29,578 bases of DNA, taken from IMG/VR virus record IMGVR_UViG_3300028025_000915, positions 1 through 29,578 of that record. One strand, given 5' to 3'. The position numbers were made by a program, and so were the translations under genes. The DNA is from a virus. Of the stretch, positions 32 through 29,578 are shown one piece after another; positions within the stretch are counted from its first letter, which is position 1; each line of letters opens with the position of its first letter. The notes under the pieces were generated by a model, which was not told the DNA's origin, ran no database searches, and saw only the letters and a list, made by a program, of their open reading frames with translations.

Positions 32-1381
32 TTAAATTCTCCTGTTAATTACTTTGGGGGTTTGTTTCCACATTTCGTCTAGCGTTACATCCGTTTGCCC
101 GACATGAAGGCCTTTAACTCTTGAATCCGACAAGATAGGGCTATCTTCGTCTTTCCATACAATGCTGAGATAGCGGAACGCATCCGCAGAGTGGCTTGTC
201 CAATCATGTTTAGGGCGATCCCTAAATATCTTTTTATCATCATCCCACTCTCGTTGATATTGACGTAAACATTCAATGCCTTCTTCACATCTATTATCAA
301 ACCAACAGCGAGTTAATGCAAGTCGTGATGCTTGAATTCCGTCTTGTAATGACAGATTTGGTACGATTTTTAGATGTTTTATGTCAATTTTTGCAGAAAT
401 CTGCTCAATTATGCTTTTTCCACCACTAGCTAGTGTTTTTGCCCTAGCGTCATGCGGCAGGTAATGGTAGCCATATTTGTACCCAAACTCATCCTCTTTT
501 TGATCTAGCAGCATGGTGTAAAACGGTATGGCCTGACCGTTGCTAGAGTGGTGATCGAGTACTCGTATCTCACCATATACCACCTGAAACCACCAAATAC
601 TTGTGGAATCGTTAAATCCTAAGTCCCAAGCAGTATGGCAAGGAAACATTGGGTCATAGTCTACGGTAGTAATACGCTCTAAATCCGTGATTCTACGCAT
701 TTCCTGACCATAGAACGCCCCAAGTATGGCTGCTTCAAAGCTACATAGGAACTCTTGCTCGTACTGGTTTATAGACATTGTGGCTTGTGCATCTTCCAAT
801 TCAGCGTCAGGCAGTAGTCCTGACTGGTCTGCTCTTAGGGTCTTGACATACCAATTAGGGTTCTTTTGGGCTTCGTTGTATATATCGTAAAAGGCATTAT
901 GGCCTTTTGGCGTACCAATAAAGGTAGCCCAGCCCTGTCTGTCTGTAAGTAAAGGCCTCACGATTTCACCCCATAGCCTTGGTTTCATGTCGGCATATTC
1001 GTCTAGCACTACGCCATCTAGGTATAAACCACGCAGTGCATCAGGGTTATCAGCACCAAATAGCCTAATCTTTGCCCCATTGACTAATTCTACCCATAAC
1101 TCAGATTGATTGGCTTTAACTATGGCTGGCTCTGCAAACTTGAGAAGGTAATCCCAAGCAATATTCTTAGCCTGTGCGTAAAAAGGGGCAATGTAAGCGT
1201 ACCTGCCGTCAGGTTTCTTTTCCATAACTGCCCTGCGGATGGTGTCGCAGATTGTAGCTACAGTCTTACCTGCCCTTCGATGACAGACCAATACAGCCCA
1301 GCGTTGATCCCGTCTGTGGAAGTCTAGGAACGCATCTCTAGCCTTGTACGGGTATTCGTACCGCTTTACTAACTCTTTCAA
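32..1381 (-). CDS. terL: Terminase large subunit (packaging ATPase/nuclease)
   Basis: This is the motor that cuts concatemeric phage DNA and pumps it into the prohead through the portal. The 449 residues show the two-domain plan. The N-terminal ATPase has a Walker A motif CHRRAGKT (residues 33-40) and a Walker B motif VVLDE (124-128). The C-terminal RNase H-like nuclease has candidate metal ligands D253 (AWDLGFNDS), D311 (HDAR) and D400 (SADAFRYL). The length is typical of the family. Its start overlaps the end of the small subunit by four bases, and the next leftward gene begins at the base following its stop. Nothing appears truncated. The headful or cohesive-end mode cannot be read from the sequence. 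Confidence 0.96.
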   Translation of the reverse strand: MKELVKRYEYPYKARDAFLDFHRRDQRWAVLVCHRRAGKTVATICDTIRRAVMEKKPDGRYAYIAPFYAQAKNIAWDYLLKFAEPAIVKANQSELWVELVNGAKIRLFGADNPDALRGLYLDGVVLDEYADMKPRLWGEIVRPLLTDRQGWATFIGTPKGHNAFYDIYNEAQKNPNWYVKTLRADQSGLLPDAELEDAQATMSINQYEQEFLCSFEAAILGAFYGQEMRRITDLERITTVDYDPMFPCHTAWDLGFNDSTSIWWFQVVYGEIRVLDHHSSNGQAIPFYTMLLDQKEDEFGYKYGYHYLPHDARAKTLASGGKSIIEQISAKIDIKHLKIVPNLSLQDGIQASRLALTRCWFDNRCEEGIECLRQYQREWDDDKKIFRDRPKHDWTSHSADAFRYLSIVWKDEDSPILSDSRVKGLHVGQTDVTLDEMWKQTPKVINRRI

Positions 1382-1695
1382 TCTAGGAACTTGTGTTCGT
1401 GAATGATCTTGACTGGCTGATCCTCGTCACCTAAATGCTCTGTACGGGCTAACTTAGGCAGGTGGTATTCCATGACGCTCTGCAACATACCAAAAGCCTT
1501 TTCAGGATTAGGTAAAACAATGAATTTGTTATCTTCGTTTTTAACGCCTATAGCGACCTGTTCTAGCCACTCTTGCATTTTGTGGGCGTTACCATCAACG
1601 AACTGTGCAATCGCTTCTCTAGCCGCTGCTGTGGACTTGTTAGGGCTACCTTTAGGTCTACCCTTTGGATTATTAGTTTGTTGTTTAATACTCAT
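1378..1695 (-). CDS. terS: Terminase small subunit (DUF5681-like)
   Basis: This 105-residue protein begins with the NPKGRPKGSPNKST-type basic segment (residues 9-22) that I associate with DUF5681-like small terminases. It continues as a predicted helical body ending in an acidic tail. Small subunits recognise the packaging site and hand DNA to the large subunit. Its position immediately before TerL, with a four-base overlap (1378-1381), supports the call more than the sequence alone. The 40-bp gap upstream (1696-1735) holds TTAAGATAAGTTAA at 1715-1728, one mismatch from the phage operator described near 9.3-11.9 kb. No convincing promoter surrounds it. Confidence 0.8.
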   Translation of the reverse strand: MSIKQQTNNPKGRPKGSPNKSTAAAREAIAQFVDGNAHKMQEWLEQVAIGVKNEDNKFIVLPNPEKAFGMLQSVMEYHLPKLARTEHLGDEDQPVKIIHEHKFLD

Positions 1696-1735: not shown

Positions 1736-3463
1736 CTATTTTTTGCGTTTTAGGTCTTGCGGTACAAAACTGATAGCACCACCTGTATTCTCAATGCCTT
1801 TATACCCTGCTTCATTGGCTATACGCTCAATTGCATTAGTAGCAGCGTTTTGATCCACGATGCCTTGGTATTGGTTGTACTGTCTAGCCAGCTTATTTAG
1901 ATTGTCAGGGTCTTGGGCCACATTGTAAAAGTCGGTAAGATTGGCTTCGTATTGGTTTGGGCCTAATCCAGCTTCTTTTGTATTGGGATTGTTGTAAAAA
2001 TAGGTGCGATTCCGTAATGCGTCTGCCAGCATTAGGCGTTTAGCTTCTGATCCCCGTATACCTGTGCCATACATAGTAGGGTCAGTTTGTAGCAGATCAG
2101 GTCTATTGCTGTAATGGTAGCCAGTTAATGCACTTGGGCTGTTAGGCTGTATAAACGGTTTCATGTACTCGGGCATACCGCCTTGGTACATAGGATCAAT
2201 CATTTCAGGCGGCAGTAAGAAAGCCTTTTGCTGTGCATATTGAATTTGACCGCCAAGTTCTGCTAGTTTTGCATCATAAGGTGTTGGATCACCGCCTGAC
2301 CTTGCAATGCTATCTCTATCAATGCGTAAATCATTCATTTGTTTTTGCAATTCAGCATTAACACCTGAATAGTTTACAAAGCTGTTTTGCCCCCGTGTTT
2401 CAGTAGCGGCAGCCATTTTAGCTAATGGCGAATATAGTTGGCTATGTGATCCATAAGCTAATTCTTCACCTTTAGGGCCAAAACTTGCACCAGTAGGCCC
2501 ATGCCCGTAATAATCGTGTACTGCACGAAATACTTGATTTTGATTTAAACCTGTATATGGGTCTATTTTATTAAGAATTTCGTGTGGCTCACCACCAGCG
2601 TAAGTATATAAATGCTTGTTTATCAACGCATCTTCTAACATTTGGGGTGATCCAGCATAATTTAAATCGCCTTTATGATATGACAAATTCATGCCTTGAT
2701 TTATCATGCGATCTAATTGTTGGGCGTTTTCTTTTGCTAATTGCTCATAGCTTGCAGGTATCAATTCTTGGTAATTGGTTGCGCCTGATTTTCTAACGGC
2801 TTCAGGGTAATTGCGTAAATATTGGGCAAACAATTTGGCCTGTAATGTAGGTTCTATGCCTTGAACCATTTGTTCATAGGTCTTAGCTATGGGAAATTGT
2901 TTTTGCAATGATGAGACAGGCATAGCCCGTACTGCATCTAAATTAAAATCAGGATTTATTTTCCTTGCAGAAAGTACCGAAGGGTTTATTTCGGGATTTC
3001 TGAGGATTTCGGATAATGTTGCGGTATTGTTTCTTCGGAGATTGGGTATTTCAAGGTTTCCTTGTACCGATCTAAGGTCATTAGGGGAAAGCCGTGTAGG
3101 GTCAAGGTTTGATTGACTGATGCCAACCCGTCTAATATCTCCTGTGTCGAAAAATCCTTTTCCTGTTGCATTTTGAACGCCTTTTTTTAATGCTGCTATT
3201 GGTACTAATGTTGCTGCTATACCTAATGGTTCGCCTTCTTCATATCCAGTCATGTACTGCATATCGTTGGGATTTAATACGCTTGTTTTTGTAGGCGTTA
3301 ATCCTGTAGCCCCTGCTGCAAACCCTGTTTCTCTTGGCAATGGGTTTTTGCCTGTTACTGTTTGCGTAAATGCCTGTGGATTGGTAATGAACCGCTGTGC
3401 TTCCATAGGCAGATTGATGATCTTATCTGCACCTTGGCGCAAGAGTTCAGCCAGCGTAGCCAT
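1736..3463 (-). CDS. Polyvalent-like phage protein with possible C-terminal ART-like domain
   Basis: This 575-residue protein is a multi-part protein, not a classic structural one. Residues 1-100 are a low-complexity N-terminus with a short hydrophobic stretch near 81-92. A central conserved block reads VHDYYGHG (315-322), then HSQLYSP (340-346) and TETRGQN (354-360). These are the hallmarks of a domain I know from large polyvalent proteins of phages and conjugative elements; its His and Glu residues could bind metal, and its activity is not known. The C-terminal part has GYHYS (448-452), DPTMYGTG (461-468) and a terminal EAGYKGI (551-557), a pattern seen in ADP-ribosyltransferase-like domains of such proteins. 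It sits in the late operon just before TerS, so it may be packaged and injected. That role is inference. The stop of the 52-aa gene directly abuts its ATG. Confidence 0.72.
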   Translation of the reverse strand: MATLAELLRQGADKIINLPMEAQRFITNPQAFTQTVTGKNPLPRETGFAAGATGLTPTKTSVLNPNDMQYMTGYEEGEPLGIAATLVPIAALKKGVQNATGKGFFDTGDIRRVGISQSNLDPTRLSPNDLRSVQGNLEIPNLRRNNTATLSEILRNPEINPSVLSARKINPDFNLDAVRAMPVSSLQKQFPIAKTYEQMVQGIEPTLQAKLFAQYLRNYPEAVRKSGATNYQELIPASYEQLAKENAQQLDRMINQGMNLSYHKGDLNYAGSPQMLEDALINKHLYTYAGGEPHEILNKIDPYTGLNQNQVFRAVHDYYGHGPTGASFGPKGEELAYGSHSQLYSPLAKMAAATETRGQNSFVNYSGVNAELQKQMNDLRIDRDSIARSGGDPTPYDAKLAELGGQIQYAQQKAFLLPPEMIDPMYQGGMPEYMKPFIQPNSPSALTGYHYSNRPDLLQTDPTMYGTGIRGSEAKRLMLADALRNRTYFYNNPNTKEAGLGPNQYEANLTDFYNVAQDPDNLNKLARQYNQYQGIVDQNAATNAIERIANEAGYKGIENTGGAISFVPQDLKRKK

Positions 3464-3622
3464 TTACTTAACTTCTTTATCCAAGTCTTTTAGTTTATTG
3501 GCAATGGCGGCCCTACGCTCTAAGCGCAAACGCTGGTTCTTTTCAAGGGTAGATTCATGCTGGGGGCGCAGCATTGCATCTTCTTTTTTGTATTTGCGGC
3601 TCATAGGGGTAATAGGTGTCAT
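3464..3622 (-). CDS. Small basic hypothetical protein, 52 aa
   Basis: This short gene of 52 codons begins MTPITPMSRKYKK and ends KLKDLDKEVK, with a central highly charged helix (RLRLERRAAIANK). It is unrecognised. The case for a real gene is its packing: its ATG overlaps the upstream stop by one base (TAATG at 3620-3624), and its own TAA is followed at once by the ATG of the 575-residue gene. An alternative start at the second Met (SRKYKK) would still fit. It may be a DNA-binding or assembly accessory; nothing in the sequence settles this. Confidence 0.65.
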   Translation of the reverse strand: MTPITPMSRKYKKEDAMLRPQHESTLEKNQRLRLERRAAIANKLKDLDKEVK

Positions 3623-3807
3623 TACATATCCTTCATCTTGTCACGAATCATGTCTTTACGGCTTTGTGGCTTGGCAGTCTTAGCAGCATCTTTAAAGTCT
3701 TGTGCGCTGGGTCTGCCTTCAGAAGCCTTTGTAGCCATCTTTTCGCCTGAACCAGCCTTGATCCTAGCCCTTTTTCGGTGAATATTTGCGTATAGTCCGT
3801 CTTTCAT
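3622..3807 (-). CDS. Small basic phage protein (MKDGLYANIH family), 61 aa
   Basis: The protein begins MKDGLYANIHRKRARIKAG and is rich in Lys and Arg. Proteins opening with this DGLYANIH-KR-RIKAGSGE signature are common in tailed phages next to DUF6321-type proteins, as here; no function is established. A longer frame reaches back to 3855, but the start at 3807 is preferred. It has a GGAG ribosome site six bases upstream, it overlaps the previous stop by one base (TAATG) like neighbouring junctions, and family members begin at this Met. Expected in late infection from its operon. Confidence 0.72.
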   Translation of the reverse strand: MKDGLYANIHRKRARIKAGSGEKMATKASEGRPSAQDFKDAAKTAKPQSRKDMIRDKMKDM

Positions 3808-4073
3808 TAGCAACTCCATCTCGCTCTTGCTGCTTTGCCCCGTTCCCCTGTCCATCCTGCTGACCTAGCACAGAAACTATCGTGTCTTGGCCCACTAGAC
3901 TGAGGTGCTTGTAAATTACTGTTGTTCTTAGCGTTGTATGCTTTGCGCCCTGCTGCTGTCATACCTGCGCCTTCTTCTACTGACTGGTAATGACGCCCTT
4001 TGCCTTTAGTTGTCTTGGCAATAGGCTTATCGTGCTTTTCTACTGCGGCACGAATGTCATCCCTTCTACTCAT
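3807..4073 (-). CDS. DUF6321-like small phage protein, 88 aa
   Basis: This basic 88-residue protein has the EEGAGMTAAGRKAYN block (residues 33-47) and the RHDSFCARSAGW block (63-74), which match what I know as the DUF6321 pattern in phages. The single motif Cys lies in SFCARSAG. No enzyme motif is visible and no function is known. It sits in a run of four small lysine-rich genes (4255 to 3464), its ATG overlapping the stop of the previous one (ATGA, 4070-4073). The shared basic character suggests nucleic-acid or capsid interior contact, but that is only inference. Confidence 0.75.
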   Translation of the reverse strand: MSRRDDIRAAVEKHDKPIAKTTKGKGRHYQSVEEGAGMTAAGRKAYNAKNNSNLQAPQSSGPRHDSFCARSAGWTGERGKAARARWSC

Positions 4074-4255
4074 GCTTTTTCTTCAATGTACTTAGCGTAG
4101 GCATCTTCTAGCTTGGCTTTGCGGTCACCTTTGGCGTTCTCACGCTCAACGCTAAGTGCAATGGCTACGGCTTGTTTTTTAGGCTTACCAGCTTTGATTT
4201 CGGCTTTAATGTTTTTGCCGACTGATTTGGAACTACCTGATTTATCTAACGGCAT
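4070..4255 (-). CDS. DUF6496-like small basic protein, 61 aa
   Basis: The 61 residues are very rich in Lys, with the segment KAEIKAGKPKKQAVAIALS (residues 17-35) that typifies short DUF6496-like phage proteins. No function is known to me. It overlaps the next gene by four bases (ATGA) and lies two bases after the stop of the ferritin-like gene, so it is co-translated with its neighbours. The C-terminus LEDAYAKYIEEKA is a likely amphipathic helix. Confidence 0.7.
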   Translation of the reverse strand: MPLDKSGSSKSVGKNIKAEIKAGKPKKQAVAIALSVERENAKGDRKAKLEDAYAKYIEEKA

Positions 4256-4257
4256 GA

Positions 4258-4617
4258 TTAAGCCTTAAATTTAAGTAAATAGATGGTCGTGTCGATCTCT
4301 TGGGCGATATTGTCGATCAATTGAACGATCTCGGAATCCATTGGCAGGTCTGACCGTGATTCTTTTACAAACCGCTGTAGGGATTGCAGGTATGCCAGCG
4401 GCTCTTTAGGCATATGGTATGTGGCTGGGAAGTCGGTAATTTGACCGTATATACCAAAATAGGTTTCGGCTAGATCATCGGTTAAATCAATAATTTTGTC
4501 GTAAAAGCCGCCCAATGCCTTGTGTTTGGCATAAGACTTAGTAGCCCAATGGAAAAAATGGGCATTTGTACCCGAATGCAGCATGGTTGCAAGAAACAAC
4601 GCCATTGATTTTTCCAT
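4258..4617 (-). CDS. DUF5856 ferritin-like/Dps-like protein
   Basis: This helical 119-residue protein opens with LFLATMLHSGTNAHFFHWAT (residues 7-26). The rest predicts four helices, as in ferritin-like and Dps-like folds; the DUF5856 family shares this opening. Candidate metal or packing residues include H14, H20, H23 and the later acidic residues in YDKIIDLTDDLAE. Family members are frequent in phages and often sit near packaging genes, but their role is not established. Dps-like DNA or iron handling is a guess by fold. It is preceded by AGGAGCG about 7 bases before the ATG, which fits a strong ribosome site. Confidence 0.7.
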   Translation of the reverse strand: MEKSMALFLATMLHSGTNAHFFHWATKSYAKHKALGGFYDKIIDLTDDLAETYFGIYGQITDFPATYHMPKEPLAYLQSLQRFVKESRSDLPMDSEIVQLIDNIAQEIDTTIYLLKFKA

Positions 4618-17044: not shown

Positions 17045-17545
17045 TTACAAGACAACCCAACGCTGGTTGCTAGGTATCGTAACTACAGCACCGCTATTAA
17101 TGGTTATTGGCCCTACTGATTCAGCGTTTTTACCAGCAGAAAGTGTATAGCTAGTCGTTACAATTGCGCTGTTTTCTACGAATACCGTGTCACCACCGCC
17201 ACCTGTAGCACCGCCACCTACTTGTGACCATGAACTACCTGAATAGCCTTCAAATTGAGCAAAAGAAGTGTTATAGCGAATCATTCCAGCGGAAGGTGCT
17301 GCGCTTCGTTGCGCTGTAGTACCTACTGGAAGGGTTACTTGACCTGTTCCACCAAATTGCAAGGTGTCATTAATACCAATTAAAGCACCAGTAATCGGTG
17401 TCTGACCGTCTGCGGCTACAGAATCAGTAAGAGTGGCAGCAATATCAGCAAGGGTTGAATTAGCCCATGATGAACTAATTGTAGTTTGGGTTACTACTGG
17501 ATTACCTGCTGGGAGCGAATAAACTCCCGATCCGTTTCTACTCAT
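17045..17545 (-). CDS. Tail fibre adaptor protein, 166 aa
   Basis: The N-terminus MSRNGSGVYSLPAGNPVVTQ and SWANSTLADIAATLTDSVAA (26-45) is a well-known virion-attachment opening of podophage-type tail fibres. It is followed by GTTAQRSAAPSAGMIRYNTS (75-94) and FEGYSGSSWSQVGGG, the short motif for fibre-intermediate repeats. The C-terminus is a small beta domain. At 166 residues it is short for a fibre, so it likely acts as the adaptor that carries separately encoded heads. It overlaps the ejection-type gene upstream by four bases (17542-17545). Confidence 0.83.
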   Translation of the reverse strand: MSRNGSGVYSLPAGNPVVTQTTISSSWANSTLADIAATLTDSVAADGQTPITGALIGINDTLQFGGTGQVTLPVGTTAQRSAAPSAGMIRYNTSFAQFEGYSGSSWSQVGGGATGGGGDTVFVENSAIVTTSYTLSAGKNAESVGPITINSGAVVTIPSNQRWVVL

Positions 17546-19404
17546 GGCTTATTTCCTTTTCTTAACTCATCTGCCATTTTATTTGGCGAATAATTAATAG
17601 ATTCTTCAATCTTCTTTTTTAAAGCCTTTTGCTGGGCTTTTTCAAAGCTGTATTTTGTAATTGATCCAATAACAGGTATTTTACCAATAGGGCTTGCAGA
17701 AATGTTATCCAATGCTTGAATTAATGCGCTAGATGTATTGGAATAGTTTGCTGCACCTTTAAGTGGGGCATTGACCATAATGGTTACTTCCATTAAATCC
17801 CGTATTTCTTGTGCGCCTTTTTTGCCAAACAAGTAATCTAGCTTGCCATCTTGGTCTAATTCCCTTACGGCAGACTTGAATTTAGCAGGGGAAACTACAG
17901 GATTACCAAAAGAATCCACATCAATAGACTGCGTAACCTTGTCTTTTAAGAACTCAATGGTTTGACCTTGTAATTCTTTAAACGCTTGCTGACCTTGTGG
18001 GCCACCTTTTTTAAGGGCTAAACCTAAGTTTTTAATATCATCTAATGATCCATTAACTACAGACTTTTGAAATACATCCTCAAAAGCGACTAAACGGTCA
18101 TCAGAATTGGGTTTTGTGCGTAATAAACGATCTACTGCGCCAATGTTTTCAAAGCGTTTTGAGAAGTCTTGACGCAATCTACGGGCATTTTGGTACATCT
18201 CACCGCCTTGCCCTTCAGTAATCGTATTGATAATGTCTTTCATCTCTCTGCCATAAACTGCGGCTGGAGTGTTAGGCTCAAAGTTCTTATTAATAACTTG
18301 GTAAATATCTTCAAGTGAATTAATAGATACCGTACCTGTGTTTTTTGGGTCGTTTTTAGCTATTTGCTCATTAACAACATCAAGAATTGGGGCAAGTTTT
18401 GACCGTACCGTAGGTGTTTGGTCGTTAATGTAAGCCGTTAATGGTGCATATTGAACTGGGGCTTCTGTTTCGCCTTGTTCTCTAGCTGCTGTGTAAGCCT
18501 TATTAATATTTGCCCTTGCTTCGTTTGCTTGGCGTGTCAATTCATCAGTAACAATCTTGCCAGTAGCCCGTAATCCAAAAGTTTCTTTGCCAGTAGCGTC
18601 TACATAAGCATCAAAGTTCTGCAAAATAGCATCATTACGCTTGGCTTGGGCTTCAATTAACGGTTTGCCAAGTTCAGGCGAAATCTTAGGTGTTTCAATC
18701 TCAAACTGTTGCTGGGCTAAATCACGCTCTAATTGACCTTTACTTGGTGTTACAGGTACACGCAAGTTCTGTGCCGTTTGCATACGAGTAACGGCTTCAG
18801 GTGTTTGTGCTGCGCCAACGCCAGCCATTGTGGGTTGTGGCTCTCTGCGTAAGGCTTGTGCCATTCTGTTTGTTGCTTGTGGAATAGCTTGCGTTACAGG
18901 TTGTACTGCGGCTTGTGCCTGTTGCGTACCTGCACCAGCCATACGAGCATAACTTGGCAACATACCTACATTAGGAATAATGGGGGGCAATTTACTGGCT
19001 TCAAACGCACTACCAATGCCTTGCAATATATCTTGGCTTACAGGGCTAGTAGGCTGATAGGTAAACCGCTGTGCTAATTCAGGTCGATCAAGACGCTTAT
19101 CTGTGCCTTGTTGGATGTTTTCTATAGCACCTGCACCAATACCAATAAACGGTGCGGCAGCTCCCGTAATCATGGTTGCTGGCACTTCGTATAAAGCCTT
19201 TACTCGATCCATCATAGAACGAGGCGGCTCTTGGACTACAGGTGGATTAGGTACTGAACCAGCTACCGTAGGCACATCGCTAGTAATGATGTTGCCCCGT
19301 GTATCAGGCGTTTTAAATGCGCTATAACGAGCCAATAGGTCGGCTTGGGTTATGTTGTCGGGTACATTCTTAACAAGCGTACCATCAGGCATCCGTACAT
19401 CCAT
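17542..19404 (-). CDS. Putative DNA-ejection/internal virion protein, 620 aa
   Basis: The preferred start is at 19404 (MDVRMPDGTLVKNVPDNITQ, 620 residues), with AGGAAGA seven bases upstream and one base after the previous stop; a longer frame to 19437 lacks this support. The protein has an N-terminal phage motif, MPDGTLVKNVPDNITQADLL, then a hydrophobic Gly/Ala-rich segment (about 80-100: PATMITGAAAPFIGIGAGAI) that could insert in membrane, and a long helical region rich in Gln, Ala and Lys. This type is typical of podophage ejection proteins, which leave the capsid with DNA and form a channel through the envelope. No lysozyme or transglycosylase motif is apparent. Confidence 0.75.
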   Translation of the reverse strand: MDVRMPDGTLVKNVPDNITQADLLARYSAFKTPDTRGNIITSDVPTVAGSVPNPPVVQEPPRSMMDRVKALYEVPATMITGAAAPFIGIGAGAIENIQQGTDKRLDRPELAQRFTYQPTSPVSQDILQGIGSAFEASKLPPIIPNVGMLPSYARMAGAGTQQAQAAVQPVTQAIPQATNRMAQALRREPQPTMAGVGAAQTPEAVTRMQTAQNLRVPVTPSKGQLERDLAQQQFEIETPKISPELGKPLIEAQAKRNDAILQNFDAYVDATGKETFGLRATGKIVTDELTRQANEARANINKAYTAAREQGETEAPVQYAPLTAYINDQTPTVRSKLAPILDVVNEQIAKNDPKNTGTVSINSLEDIYQVINKNFEPNTPAAVYGREMKDIINTITEGQGGEMYQNARRLRQDFSKRFENIGAVDRLLRTKPNSDDRLVAFEDVFQKSVVNGSLDDIKNLGLALKKGGPQGQQAFKELQGQTIEFLKDKVTQSIDVDSFGNPVVSPAKFKSAVRELDQDGKLDYLFGKKGAQEIRDLMEVTIMVNAPLKGAANYSNTSSALIQALDNISASPIGKIPVIGSITKYSFEKAQQKALKKKIEESINYSPNKMADELRKGNKP

Positions 19405-19405
19405 A

Positions 19406-20677
19406 TTATCTTCCTGTAGGTAACTGGTTAAAGTCAACTACATTGCCACCACCTTGCTCTGCACCAACAATACGATTAATTTGGCGTACACCACTTGGCC
19501 CAGCTTGTGATTTCAAGCCTTCAATTGCCTTTATGCGAGAATTTTGCTTTTGTTTAATAACTTGGTCGCTATCACCTAACTGTGGGAAGTATTTCTTTTC
19601 TTCGTTAGCGTATTCTGAAGCTGAGATAGCTGCACCCGATTCCTTACGCAACACAGCACTTACAAAATCTCGTCTAGCTTGGTCGTTTTGTTGTTGTTGT
19701 GGGTTAGGCCCACCTAAATAAGTAGGCAACACATTGAATGTAGAACGAACACTTTGTTCTAATTTATCACCAACAATAGGCGCACCGCCTAAAACACCAC
19801 CAGCTACAGTACGAATAACGCCAGTATTGGTTACACCTTGTTTTTCCAAGTCAGTAGCAATTCTGTTGGCTTCAACGGCTCTTGCGCCAAAACTAACAGC
19901 ATTACCTTGTGTTTCTGTTAAAGGTTTGCCGCCACCCATTAAAGGTTCACCACCTTGACCCATTACTGGTCTAGCTTGACCAGTACGAGTATCTATTAAG
20001 AAAGTGCCATCGTCACGCTCAACTACTTGTCCAGCAGTAGGCATCTGCGTCTTAGGAATACGCTGCAATACTATCGTTGGGTTATTAGGATCACGCAATT
20101 CAATAGCCGTACCAGTATCAATCTGCAATGGCGTACGAGGTTTTCCTGCCCCAGTAAATACAGGCTTCATTGTGACTGGATCAATTAATGTATCTTCTAC
20201 GCCCACTTTTATTGGGCCTTCTGTCAGTTTTCTTAATCCAGCGGCTTGCAATGCAGGGTTATATGCGGTTGCAGCAAAGTCATAAGCACCCTGTACATTA
20301 GGTGGTATAGCTGCTTGAGCAGGAGTTCCCCTAACTGTTTCATAAGTTTCAGTAGGTATGTCAGGAGTTCCAGCAATTTCAGGTCTGCCTTGCATAAGGT
20401 TACGAAATTCTTTAAGTTCATCACCGTAACGCTGACGCAATTGTTTAGCAATTTCTAAGGCTTGTTTATCGCCTTGTTCAGCCAAGCGTGAACCCACATA
20501 AGTATTGGCTAAATTAGCAAGATTTTGAGTAAAGGATGGGGCAACATAACGACCACTAATCATTTGACCTTGTGGTTGTTGTTGGCCTTGCTGCATGAGC
20601 AATTGCGCCATTTGTTGTTGGCGGTTTAATTGCTGTTGTTGCTCAAACAGTTCGGGGGGTAGAGTTCCAATAGCCAT
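19406..20677 (-). CDS. Putative internal virion/ejection protein, 423 aa
   Basis: The 423 residues start with a Gln-rich segment (ELFEQQQQLNRQQQMAQLLM, 9-28) and end with the phage motif FVSAVLRKESGAAISASEYA, then EKKYFPQLGDSDQVIKQKQN. That C-terminal motif recurs in ejection-type virion proteins of podophages. The middle is low-complexity with many Pro and Gly. It lies between two other candidate ejection proteins, and the three probably form the internal assembly. Catalytic motifs are absent. Confidence 0.75.
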   Translation of the reverse strand: MAIGTLPPELFEQQQQLNRQQQMAQLLMQQGQQQPQGQMISGRYVAPSFTQNLANLANTYVGSRLAEQGDKQALEIAKQLRQRYGDELKEFRNLMQGRPEIAGTPDIPTETYETVRGTPAQAAIPPNVQGAYDFAATAYNPALQAAGLRKLTEGPIKVGVEDTLIDPVTMKPVFTGAGKPRTPLQIDTGTAIELRDPNNPTIVLQRIPKTQMPTAGQVVERDDGTFLIDTRTGQARPVMGQGGEPLMGGGKPLTETQGNAVSFGARAVEANRIATDLEKQGVTNTGVIRTVAGGVLGGAPIVGDKLEQSVRSTFNVLPTYLGGPNPQQQQNDQARRDFVSAVLRKESGAAISASEYANEEKKYFPQLGDSDQVIKQKQNSRIKAIEGLKSQAGPSGVRQINRIVGAEQGGGNVVDFNQLPTGR

Positions 20678-28290: not shown

Positions 28291-28668
28291 CTATCGGTAA
28301 GAAAGTTTGGAGTATGCAATCTCAGCAATCTGCCGTTTACGGGCTTCTTGATCTTTGCGGCTAAATTCAATGGGTTTTTGCTGCATTGGCACAGCATCGC
28401 CTATTTCCACGCAGTTATTACGCTTTAGGTTCTCACGGTGCTTAGAACGGCTAGAAACCCATGTACCGTCAGCCATGCTTATATGACCTTGTATGTCAGG
28501 CATCACCATAGGGGCTACCCTAGACTTCATGGCTACCTTATCTTGCCACGATGCTTTGGCAGCTTCTAAGCCAATGGTAGGTGTCCACCATTCTAGGAAA
28601 AATTCCTCATCAGTTTGCTTAACTTCAACATGATTTCCTTCGGAATATCCGCATTTTGGGCAAAGCAT
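28291..28668 (-). CDS. Zinc-ribbon-like phage protein upstream of scaffold, 125 aa
   Basis: The product opens MLCPKCGYSEGNH (C3, C6 as a half zinc ribbon) and continues with DIQGHISMADGTWVSSRSKH (59-78) and RENLKRNNCVEIGDAV. The block W-ITSRS.HRE.L....CVE.G is frequent in short phage proteins placed next to scaffold or portal genes. No role is known. It begins at the base of the glycosyltransferase stop and lies eight bases before the scaffold start. Confidence 0.7.
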   Translation of the reverse strand: MLCPKCGYSEGNHVEVKQTDEEFFLEWWTPTIGLEAAKASWQDKVAMKSRVAPMVMPDIQGHISMADGTWVSSRSKHRENLKRNNCVEIGDAVPMQQKPIEFSRKDQEARKRQIAEIAYSKLSYR

Positions 28669-29578
28669 TACATTCTCCTTATGATTTCGGGTAATTGATC
28701 GTATTCGCTAGGTCTAAGCAAGCAAATACTGTCGTACCAACGGGCATTTTTCCACCGCCAGCATACAAATTCTTCTTTTGGCAACAAAACTACGCATTTA
28801 ACCCCCAAAGCACCAGCAAGATGGGCTGTTCCCGTGTCTACGGTTACGATTCCCTTCATTGCTTTCATGTGGGATGCGGTTTGTACCCAGTTTTTCTTCC
28901 AACCATCGTTGGGAAGTGGGTGAAATAGCCCATCAGAATTGGGATTTAGGCTATAAGCGTCATCCCCGACCATTTCAGCCATATGTTCATTGGCAATAGA
29001 CTTGATGTAATACAAGGTTTGCTTAGATGCTTCCCAATTTACCCCGATCTTAGGCGGTATATTGCTTGGCAGGGCGTGTAAATAGCCTTCTGAACCTACA
29101 ATTTTTTTGCGTGTTACAGGAAACATCGCCTTAACAATGGGATGCTGTAGCGAAATGTAGTACGGCAGAGACATTGAGCCAATCCAGTAATCAGATTCAA
29201 TAGCCGCACCTTGCGTTAAATCGTTGCTAAACACATCTACAGCGTGGATTTGACCTAAAAGGTGGTGCAATGTACCTTCTTGCAGAACAACGACCCTAGA
29301 TGCCCCTAAAGCCTTTAAAGCAGGTAAAAAACGGGCAAACATAATAATGTCACCAAAGCCTTGCTCCATCTGTACGGTGATCGACTTACCAATTAACGGT
29401 TCACCTCTCCATACAGGCATTTTTAGGGCAGGGGCGTAAGGCTGGGCTTGCTTGGCAATAATGTCAGGATGCCAACGGTATTCAAACCCCCTAAAGCCAG
29501 CTTCGTATCTGCCAGCGTGTAGGTGTTCGTAAGCTAGTTTATATTGTGCGTCTGCACTTATATCAGTAGTAATAATGC
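28668..29578 (-). CDS. Partial glycosyltransferase-like protein with TPR-type start
   Basis: The reading frame is open to the window end at 29578, and the first in-frame ATG (29420) lies inside conserved sequence, so it cannot be the start. Upstream of it the frame encodes ADAQYKLAYEHLHAGRYEAG and FEYRWHP, the TPR-like lead of this protein group. Next come WRGEPLIGKSITVQMEQGFG and DIIMFARFLPALKALGA, and towards the end TVDTGTAHLAGALGVKCVVL. These fit a GT9/heptosyltransferase-like, GT-B fold protein common in aquatic phages. It might modify virion or host glycans. In circular reading its start is the ATG at 31-29; total length would be about 313 residues. Confidence 0.82.
   Translation of the reverse strand, partial: IITTDISADAQYKLAYEHLHAGRYEAGFRGFEYRWHPDIIAKQAQPYAPALKMPVWRGEPLIGKSITVQMEQGFGDIIMFARFLPALKALGASRVVVLQEGTLHHLLGQIHAVDVFSNDLTQGAAIESDYWIGSMSLPYYISLQHPIVKAMFPVTRKKIVGSEGYLHALPSNIPPKIGVNWEASKQTLYYIKSIANEHMAEMVGDDAYSLNPNSDGLFHPLPNDGWKKNWVQTASHMKAMKGIVTVDTGTAHLAGALGVKCVVLLPKEEFVCWRWKNARWYDSICLLRPSEYDQLPEIIRRM

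What the first reader, a model, noticed from the sequence alone, without database searches (positions are those of the whole stretch)
1736..3463. Polyvalent-like protein with VHDxxGH domain and possible ADP-ribosyltransferase end
The central VHDYYGHG...HSQLYSP...TETRGQN block and the terminal GYHYS...YGTG...EAGYKGI block are two separable domains known to me only from large phage and conjugative-element proteins thought to be delivered into the host. The gene is in the late operon ahead of TerS. If packaged and injected, the ART-like domain may modify a host protein at the start of infection. The VHDxxGH domain has several invariant His and Glu residues and looks like an uncharacterised enzyme.
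Basis: partly seen in the sequence, partly recalled or inferred. Interest (0 to 1): 0.62.

Follow-up and report, generated by a model that had tools for sequence, protein, structure and literature searches.

The report
Phage late protein: putative metalloenzyme plus ART
A freshwater phage makes a two-part protein next to its DNA-packaging genes: one part is an unnamed, very strictly conserved, probably metal-dependent enzyme that bacteria also carry as an ordinary stand-alone gene, and the other is folded like the enzymes that attach ADP-ribose to proteins, although it lacks the usual third active-site residue.

Summary
In detail: a 575-aa ORF on the minus strand, directly ahead of a TerS-like gene and TerL. 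AlphaFold2 gives two confident domains behind a disordered ~100-aa leader. (1) Residues 444-575 have an ADP-ribosyltransferase (ART) fold; every PDB chain that matches this stretch is an ART or, for the cyanophage A4 pre-ejectosome, a virion ejection protein. His450 and Tyr488 are conserved, but the third, acidic position is Lys555 here and is not conserved in the family, so ordinary transferase activity is not assured. (2) The VHDxxGH domain (about 180-440) has no Pfam or NCBIfam family, only PHROG 3170 (unknown function). Across 123 non-redundant homologues H316, D317, H321, E333, H340, E355, D278, Q249 and Q359-N360 are invariant. It recurs in polyvalent proteins up to ~4000 aa with ART-PolyVal and LPD domains. 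Best reading: an uncharacterised, probably metal-dependent enzyme fused to an atypical ART, probably carried in the virion. Injection and chemistry are untested.

The parts
1736..3463 (-). 575-aa two-domain late protein (the finding)
   Evidence: ORF; 87% aa identical full-length relatives L001-L003, L013/L026; purifying selection
3164..3463 (-). N-terminal leader, aa 1-100, predicted disordered or short helices; no match in phage records; present only in the closest clade
   Evidence: pLDDT <50 over most of 1-100; no match; different N-termini in relatives
2144..2926 (-). VHDxxGH domain, aa 180-440 (phrog_3170 matches aa 238-368), all-alpha with two short strands, putative metal-dependent enzyme
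   Evidence: domain model pLDDT 92.3, pTM 0.88; phrog_3170 E 9e-18; no Pfam or NCBIfam match for phage or bacterial members
2501..2518 (-). H316-D-Y-Y-G-H321 motif on helix 308-324
   Evidence: H316, D317, H321 in 123/123 homologues (partly imposed by the motif filter)
2444..2470 (-). G332-E333-E-L-A-Y-G-S-H340 on helix 330-341
   Evidence: G332, E333, H340 in 123/123, not part of the search pattern
2381..2401 (-). E355-T-R-G-Q-N-S361 on helix 346-365
   Evidence: E355, T356, Q359, N360 in 123/123 (partly imposed by the motif filter)
2234..2368 (-). Helical hairpin insert, aa 366-410, absent from distant homologues
   Evidence: it fills the structural match list of the domain model
1739..2134 (-). 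C-terminal ART-fold domain, aa 444-575; H450 (2114-2116), Y488 (2000-2002), K555 (1799-1801)
   Evidence: VIA-align Z 7.5 to AcrIF11 6KYF, 7.0 NatT 8QNQ, 6.5 MbcT 6FKG, 5.8 ParT 6D0H, 5.6 cyanophage A4 pre-ejectosome 9K3A_B; columns
1378..1695 (-). TerS-like gene (DUF5681-like, sub-threshold)
   Evidence: overlaps TerL; synteny
32..1381 (-). Terminase large subunit
   Evidence: phrog_2 E 4e-40
3622..4617 (-). Conserved upstream genes of the same operon (3622-3855, 3807-4073 DUF6321-like, 4070-4255, 4258-4617 Dps-like phrog_858)

Best explanation
This is a small polyvalent-type late protein. SHOWN by sequence or model: a disordered leader, an unnamed all-alpha domain with an invariant His/Asp/Glu/Gln/Asn set, and an ART-fold domain; a late packaging operon; relatives in which the same pair sits inside large multidomain phage proteins; free-standing bacterial homologues of the VHDxxGH domain in conserved gene neighbourhoods. 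INFERRED: the VHDxxGH domain is an enzyme (about 0.85), most likely with a metal held by H316, H321 and E355 and helped by E333 and H340 (about 0.65), acting on a small, perhaps adenosyl- or nucleoside-type host metabolite (about 0.25; hint from the S-adenosylhomocysteinase-like operon partner). INFERRED: the protein is made late, carried in the virion and released into the host with the DNA (about 0.6), where the enzyme acts at the start of infection and the ART domain binds NAD and either modifies a host molecule with an unusual active site or serves as a binding module (about even, because the third catalytic residue is not conserved).
For: ART fold: full model core pLDDT mostly 80-98; all 11 rows whose range covers residues ~440-575 are ART-superfamily chains or the A4 pre-ejectosome (chain residues 1421-1602); GYxG...FxP register shared with ART-PolyVal. 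VHDxxGH enzyme: 123/123 invariant polar and charged residues including E333, H340, D278, Q249 and Y269, which were not in the search pattern; dN/dS about 0.12 in this domain and <0.1 in the ART; free-standing 220-300-aa bacterial proteins in a conserved operon, with DUF3293 adjacent or fused in every group-B genome that has it and an S-adenosylhomocysteinase-like partner. Polyvalent context: ART-PolyVal in L060, L093, L019, L031 and record MW202675; LPD22/23; Planktothrix phage homologue annotated 'large polyvalent protein'. Virion link: next to TerS/TerL in close and several divergent relatives; ARTs next to terminase genes are thought to be head-packaged (PMC9503650); Rhodococcus phage E3 gp205 annotated 'structural protein'; relatives L090 and L094 have a T4-like capsid-targeting-type N-terminus, and L090 lies among neck, baseplate and PhoH genes.
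Against: No proteomics for this phage; the E3 'structural' label is an annotation whose basis was not seen. VIA Z stays below 8. K555 replaces the acidic residue of ART-PolyVal and AcrIF11, and the position varies in the family. The domain-only model of the VHDxxGH part matched no PDB fold, so metal binding rests on conserved residues alone. Conservation of H316, D317, H321, E355, Q359 and N360 is partly built into the search and filter patterns.
Confidence: 0.55

Rival explanations
1. It is mainly an internal virion or ejection protein; the two domains are structural or inherited modules without catalysis in the host.
For: Late operon position; an ART-like domain sits in the cyanophage A4 pre-ejectosome; relative L071 follows two other large proteins that look like internal virion proteins; third ART residue missing.
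Against: Invariant polar/charged set across phages, plasmids and free-standing bacterial proteins and strong purifying selection point to chemistry, at least in the VHDxxGH domain.
Confidence: 0.2
2. It acts inside the infected cell during packaging (late intracellular enzyme or terminase accessory) and is never injected.
For: Next to TerS/TerL in close and several divergent relatives.
Against: Other relatives sit elsewhere (after putative internal virion proteins in L071; among neck and baseplate genes in L090), so the link is to late genes in general, not to terminase.
Confidence: 0.15
3. The VHDxxGH domain is a 2-His-1-Glu iron oxygenase that works like aromatic amino acid hydroxylases (HD[VIL]FGH...E).
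For: Bacterial phenylalanine hydroxylases share HD-x-F-G-H, followed by a glutamate about 40 residues on, against 34 here; hhalign picks exactly that motif.
Against: Only 14-15 columns align (probability 27-32%); no PF00351 match; no hydroxylase among the fold matches. No fold-level support.
Confidence: 0.12
4. The C-terminal domain is a fully active ART with an unconventional active site (as in AcrIF11, whose key residues are H-F-H-D) that modifies one host defence protein.
For: Best fold match is AcrIF11, a phage-encoded ART that inhibits CRISPR by ADP-ribosylating Csy1/Cas8f (PMC12421852); strong purifying selection on this domain, dN 0.003-0.03 against dS 0.38-0.49.
Against: K555 at the position of the acidic residue; no PF18760 match.
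Confidence: 0.3

Closest known systems
Polyvalent proteins of phages and conjugative elements (Iyer et al. 2017, PMC5512222)
   Same: Disparate domains in one late phage protein; ART domain; relatives of the same module carry ART-PolyVal, LPD22/23 and GNAT-like domains and reach ~4000 aa
   Different: Only 575 aa; no domain of the window protein matches a Pfam polyvalent (ART-PolyVal or LPD) model; the main domain also occurs as a free-standing chromosomal bacterial gene
PHROG 3170 (unknown function; e.g. Bixzunavirus gp95)
   Same: The window protein and all 53 members of A4 match it; includes mycobacteriophage ET08 gp95
   Different: phrog_3170 matches only aa 238-368 here and has no function; the mycobacteriophage protein aligns with the window protein over aa 124-367 only, and an ART end was not shown for it
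ART-PolyVal (PF18760), AcrIF11 and RES-type NAD-consuming toxins (NatT, MbcT, ParT)
   Same: Predicted fold; strand-1 His and strand-2 Tyr; C-terminal GYxG...FxP register
   Different: No PF18760 match; acidic residue replaced by Lys in the window clade and variable elsewhere
Aromatic amino acid hydroxylases (PF00351)
   Same: HDxxGH motif and a later Glu
   Different: No profile or fold similarity beyond the motif

Membership tests
Polyvalent proteins | Several functionally disparate domains in one polypeptide | tested here: met
   Two separate confident domains in the model
Polyvalent proteins | Encoded among late/virion genes | tested here: met
   TerS-TerL next; portal-like gene in L024
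Polyvalent proteins | Domains recur in larger polyvalent architectures | tested here: met
   Module in proteins of 500-3700 aa in viral contigs and up to 4017 aa in genome contigs, with PF18760, LPD22, LPD23
Polyvalent proteins | Recognisable polyvalent Pfam domain in the window protein itself | tested here: not met
   No ART-PolyVal or LPD hit up to E 1
Polyvalent proteins | Delivered into the host with the DNA | not testable with these tools
   Needs virion proteomics
ART superfamily | ART fold | tested here: met
   All fold matches of residues ~440-575 are ARTs or the A4 pre-ejectosome, best Z 7.5 with 109 residues aligned at 3.9 A; predicted, and Z below 8
ART superfamily | Strand-1 His and strand-2 Tyr | tested here: met
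   H450 44/48 and Y488 43/48 in A4; 19/19 and 18/19 in A13
ART superfamily | Third catalytic acidic residue | tested here: not met
   K555 here; E in 23 of 50 relatives, otherwise S/T/A/G/K/Q/R/N/V; position inferred from a 30-column alignment
ART superfamily | NAD binding and transfer | not testable with these tools
   Needs biochemistry
ART-PolyVal PF18760 | Profile match | tested here: not met
PHROG 3170 | Profile match | tested here: met
   E 9e-18 over aa 238-368; all 53 members of A4
Aromatic amino acid hydroxylase PF00351 | Profile match | tested here: not met
   No match in the window record nor for the proteins scanned against Pfam
Aromatic amino acid hydroxylase PF00351 | HDxxGH plus downstream Glu | tested here: met
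   Motif level only
Aromatic amino acid hydroxylase PF00351 | Hydroxylase fold | tested here: inconclusive
   Not among Foldseek/VIA rows

The most novel reading that the evidence does not exclude
The VHDxxGH domain is a new class of metal-dependent enzyme acting on adenosyl- or NAD-type metabolites, exchanged between bacterial chromosomes (S-adenosylhomocysteinase-like + VHDxxGH + DUF3293 operon; N6-methylase/CRISPR neighbourhoods in Micromonosporaceae) and phages, which carry it in the virion together with an ART to disarm a host defence or reprogramme metabolism in the first minutes of infection.
Probability: 0.15. Interest if true: 0.85.

Novelty: new variant of a known kind. Interest (0 to 1): 0.58.

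Why it matters
A domain with absolutely conserved catalytic-looking residues, present in mycobacteriophages, cyanophages, freshwater phages, actinobacterial plasmids and the chromosomes of several phyla, has no Pfam or NCBIfam family and no known activity. The small free-standing bacterial versions can be expressed and assayed with their operon partners, which makes the function of a frequent phage 'polyvalent' domain directly testable. The atypical ART end asks whether phage-borne ARTs can act, or only bind NAD, without the usual acidic residue.

Tried and rejected
Pfam, NCBIfam, PADLOC and PDB sequence searches with the protein and with profiles gave no family for the VHDxxGH domain. The YscX, Med25 and DUF1989 hits are chance-level or single-member. 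Foldseek and VIA-align with the domain-only model matched only the helical hairpin insert; absence of a match is not proof of a new fold. Aromatic amino acid hydroxylase homology: motif only. DUF3293 as the N-terminal part of the actinobacterial plasmid versions: suspected by eye, not supported (hhalign 7%). A HExxH zincin reading: spacing is wrong (HDxxGH). HD-domain phosphohydrolase: no Pfam match and no upstream metal His. Search of viral contigs with the C-terminal profile alone failed for lack of a conserved stretch. The N-terminal leader has no match in phage records. The cyanophage A4 structure paper was not held. No paper on DUF3293 was found.

Full report
WHAT IS THERE. The ORF at 1736-3463 is on the minus strand and encodes 575 aa. 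It ends 40 bp before a TerS-like gene and TerL (phrog_2 E 4e-40). The window is a 29,578-base IMG/VR virus record that stops just past TerL; in the 41-kb relative L024 the order is Dps-like, small genes, this gene, TerS, TerL, a small gene, then a 758-aa protein that looks like a portal (by eye). The order around TerS/TerL is kept in all close relatives long enough to show it and, with TerS/TerL or TerL, in several relatives of about 36-46% identity (L064, L070, L079, L081, L061-L063).

DOMAINS. AlphaFold2 on a 53-sequence alignment of window and viral-contig proteins (A4) gave mean pLDDT 81.7; residues 1-100 are mostly disordered, the remainder is mostly 80-98. The conserved core 180-440 alone gave pLDDT 92.3, pTM 0.88.

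C-TERMINAL ART FOLD. Foldseek's best PDB hit for the full model is AcrIF11, 6KYF (E 0.21, probability 0.90). VIA-align puts residues ~440-575 on AcrIF11 (Z 7.5, 109 residues, 3.9 A), NatT (7.0), MbcT (6.5), ParT (5.8), the cyanophage A4 pre-ejectosome chain B (5.6, residues 1421-1602) and, lower, the ART subunits of several bacterial toxins. Each Z is below the caution level of 8, but all 11 rows covering this stretch are ARTs or the A4 protein. At sequence level, H450 (44/48), S452, Y488 (43/48), Y490, Y513, D518, G553-Y554-x-G556 are conserved. A 30-column profile alignment puts the GYxG...FxP end in register with ART-PolyVal GYDG...FDP (probability 24%). The residue in the place of the ART-PolyVal Asp is K555 here; relatives have E (23 of 50), S, A, G, T, K, Q, R, N or V. 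In AcrIF11 the acidic pair in the corresponding loop (D115/E116) is needed for activity, with key residues described as H-F-H-D (PMC12421852). So the fold is supported, the conventional triad is not. The domain is nevertheless under strong purifying selection (dN 0.003-0.03, dS 0.38-0.49 against 87%-identical relatives).

VHDxxGH DOMAIN. It matches only phrog_3170, unknown function. No Pfam or NCBIfam model matches phage or bacterial members, nor does any PDB sequence. Homologues: 202 phage records, among them 187 Mycobacterium phages (Bixzunavirus ET08 gp95), Rhodococcus phage E3 gp205 'structural protein', Microcystis phage Mel-JY33 (4012 aa), podovirus ctQRb9 and Planktothrix phage Pag-Yong1 'large polyvalent protein'; >586 viral-contig stretches; 4 actinobacterial plasmids; 109 stretches in bacterial and archaeal genome contigs. 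In 123 non-redundant homologues Q249, Y269, D278, R313, H316, D317, H321, F328, G332, E333, H340, E355, T356, Q359 and N360 are invariant. Part of this (N309-D317, H321, E355-N360) was selected for by the search or filter patterns; Q249, Y269, D278, F328, G332, E333 and H340 were not. The residues sit on three successive helices (308-324, 330-341, 346-365).

POLYVALENT CONTEXT. In viral contigs the two-domain module (aa ~150-575) lies in proteins from about 500 to 3700 aa, some with ART-PolyVal (L060, L093, L019, L031; MW202675), LPD22, LPD23, GNAT or GDSL domains. L071 adds an ART-PolyVal-like N-terminus (hhalign 74%, 127 columns), so the VHDxxGH domain can be flanked by two ART-type domains. 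L090 and L094 start with FISFADFIAE and LLSFKEFLAE, like the capsid-targeting peptide of T4 internal proteins (from memory, a lead), and L090 is beside a head-tail adaptor, a baseplate wedge and PhoH genes. ARTs near terminase genes have been interpreted as packaged and injected (PMC9503650).

BACTERIAL FREE-STANDING PROTEINS. Group B (Bacteroidota, gamma- and alphaproteobacteria; 10 loci): 280-300-aa proteins in an operon with a ~350-aa NAD-binding protein related to S-adenosyl/S-inosylhomocysteine hydrolases (7R3A E 2e-10) and DUF3293, which is adjacent or fused in all 8 of 9 genomes that have it. Group A (Micromonosporaceae, 20 loci): 220-265 aa, divergent from an N6-methylase that matches type I methylases (20/20 loci), with Cas3 of a CRISPR system in 14 and a serine/threonine kinase in 13; this may be a defence island. 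Group C: 450-585-aa actinobacterial versions, partly on plasmids, with A in place of G320. In a quick maximum-likelihood tree groups A and B are each one side of a branch (support 87 and 98) in different parts of the tree, group A beside actinophages, group B among giant proteins: more than one transfer between mobile elements and chromosomes, direction not resolved.

HOW IT MAY WORK. The invariant His/Glu set suggests a metal site. HDxxGH followed by Glu recalls the 2-His-1-Glu iron site of phenylalanine hydroxylase, but hhalign aligns just the 14-15 motif columns (27-32%) and the fold searches did not show that family, so it is a hint to a type of site, not to membership. The S-adenosylhomocysteinase-like partner suggests an adenosyl or nucleoside substrate; that is speculation. 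Delivery in the virion is inferred from late-gene position and relatives.

VERDICT. An ordinary genomic setting for a polyvalent-type protein, but with an unnamed, widespread and very strictly conserved putative enzyme whose free-standing bacterial homologues make it testable, and an ART end that looks atypical.

Noticed in passing
window 4258-4617 (-): Dps/ferritin-like small protein (phrog_858) four genes upstream in the same operon; kept in close relatives. Interesting beside a possible iron enzyme.
   Followed up: partly
window 17542-19437 (-): 631-aa late protein without any Pfam or PHROG match; its start (MPDGTLVKNVPDNITQADLL) looks like phage internal virion proteins. Another candidate packaged protein.
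   Followed up: no
window 28668-29576 (-): 302-aa partial ORF at the record edge that looks by eye like a TPR/glycosyltransferase-type protein in the late region; no PHROG match.
   Followed up: no
L118, L119, L122, L138, L147 and other Micromonosporaceae loci: Free-standing VHDxxGH gene divergent from a type I-like N6-methylase in 20/20 loci, with Cas3, CRISPR-like repeats, a serine/threonine kinase and a UvrD-like helicase nearby: possible defence island.
   Followed up: partly
L106, L109, L114, L117, L130, L131, L152, L155: Conserved bacterial operon: S-adenosylhomocysteinase-like protein + VHDxxGH protein + DUF3293, function unknown.
   Followed up: partly
records OQ594354.1, OL906435.1, PP438419.1: Three phage records with different stated hosts (Synechococcus, Planktothrix, Planktothricoides) have the same length of 65,014 bp and the same match: possibly one phage deposited three times. 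PP438424.1 and PP438410.1 likewise share a 100% identical domain.
   Followed up: no
record PQ492659.1 (L190): Limnohabitans phage DC33, 39 kb with a 3125-aa protein carrying the ART-type domain, is filed as Inoviridae, which looks wrong.
   Followed up: no
window 1739-3463 (-): Synonymous divergence from 87%-identical relatives differs strongly along the gene (dS 0.12-0.37 in the leader, ~1.05 in the VHDxxGH domain, 0.38-0.49 in the ART), suggesting mosaic recombination.
   Followed up: no
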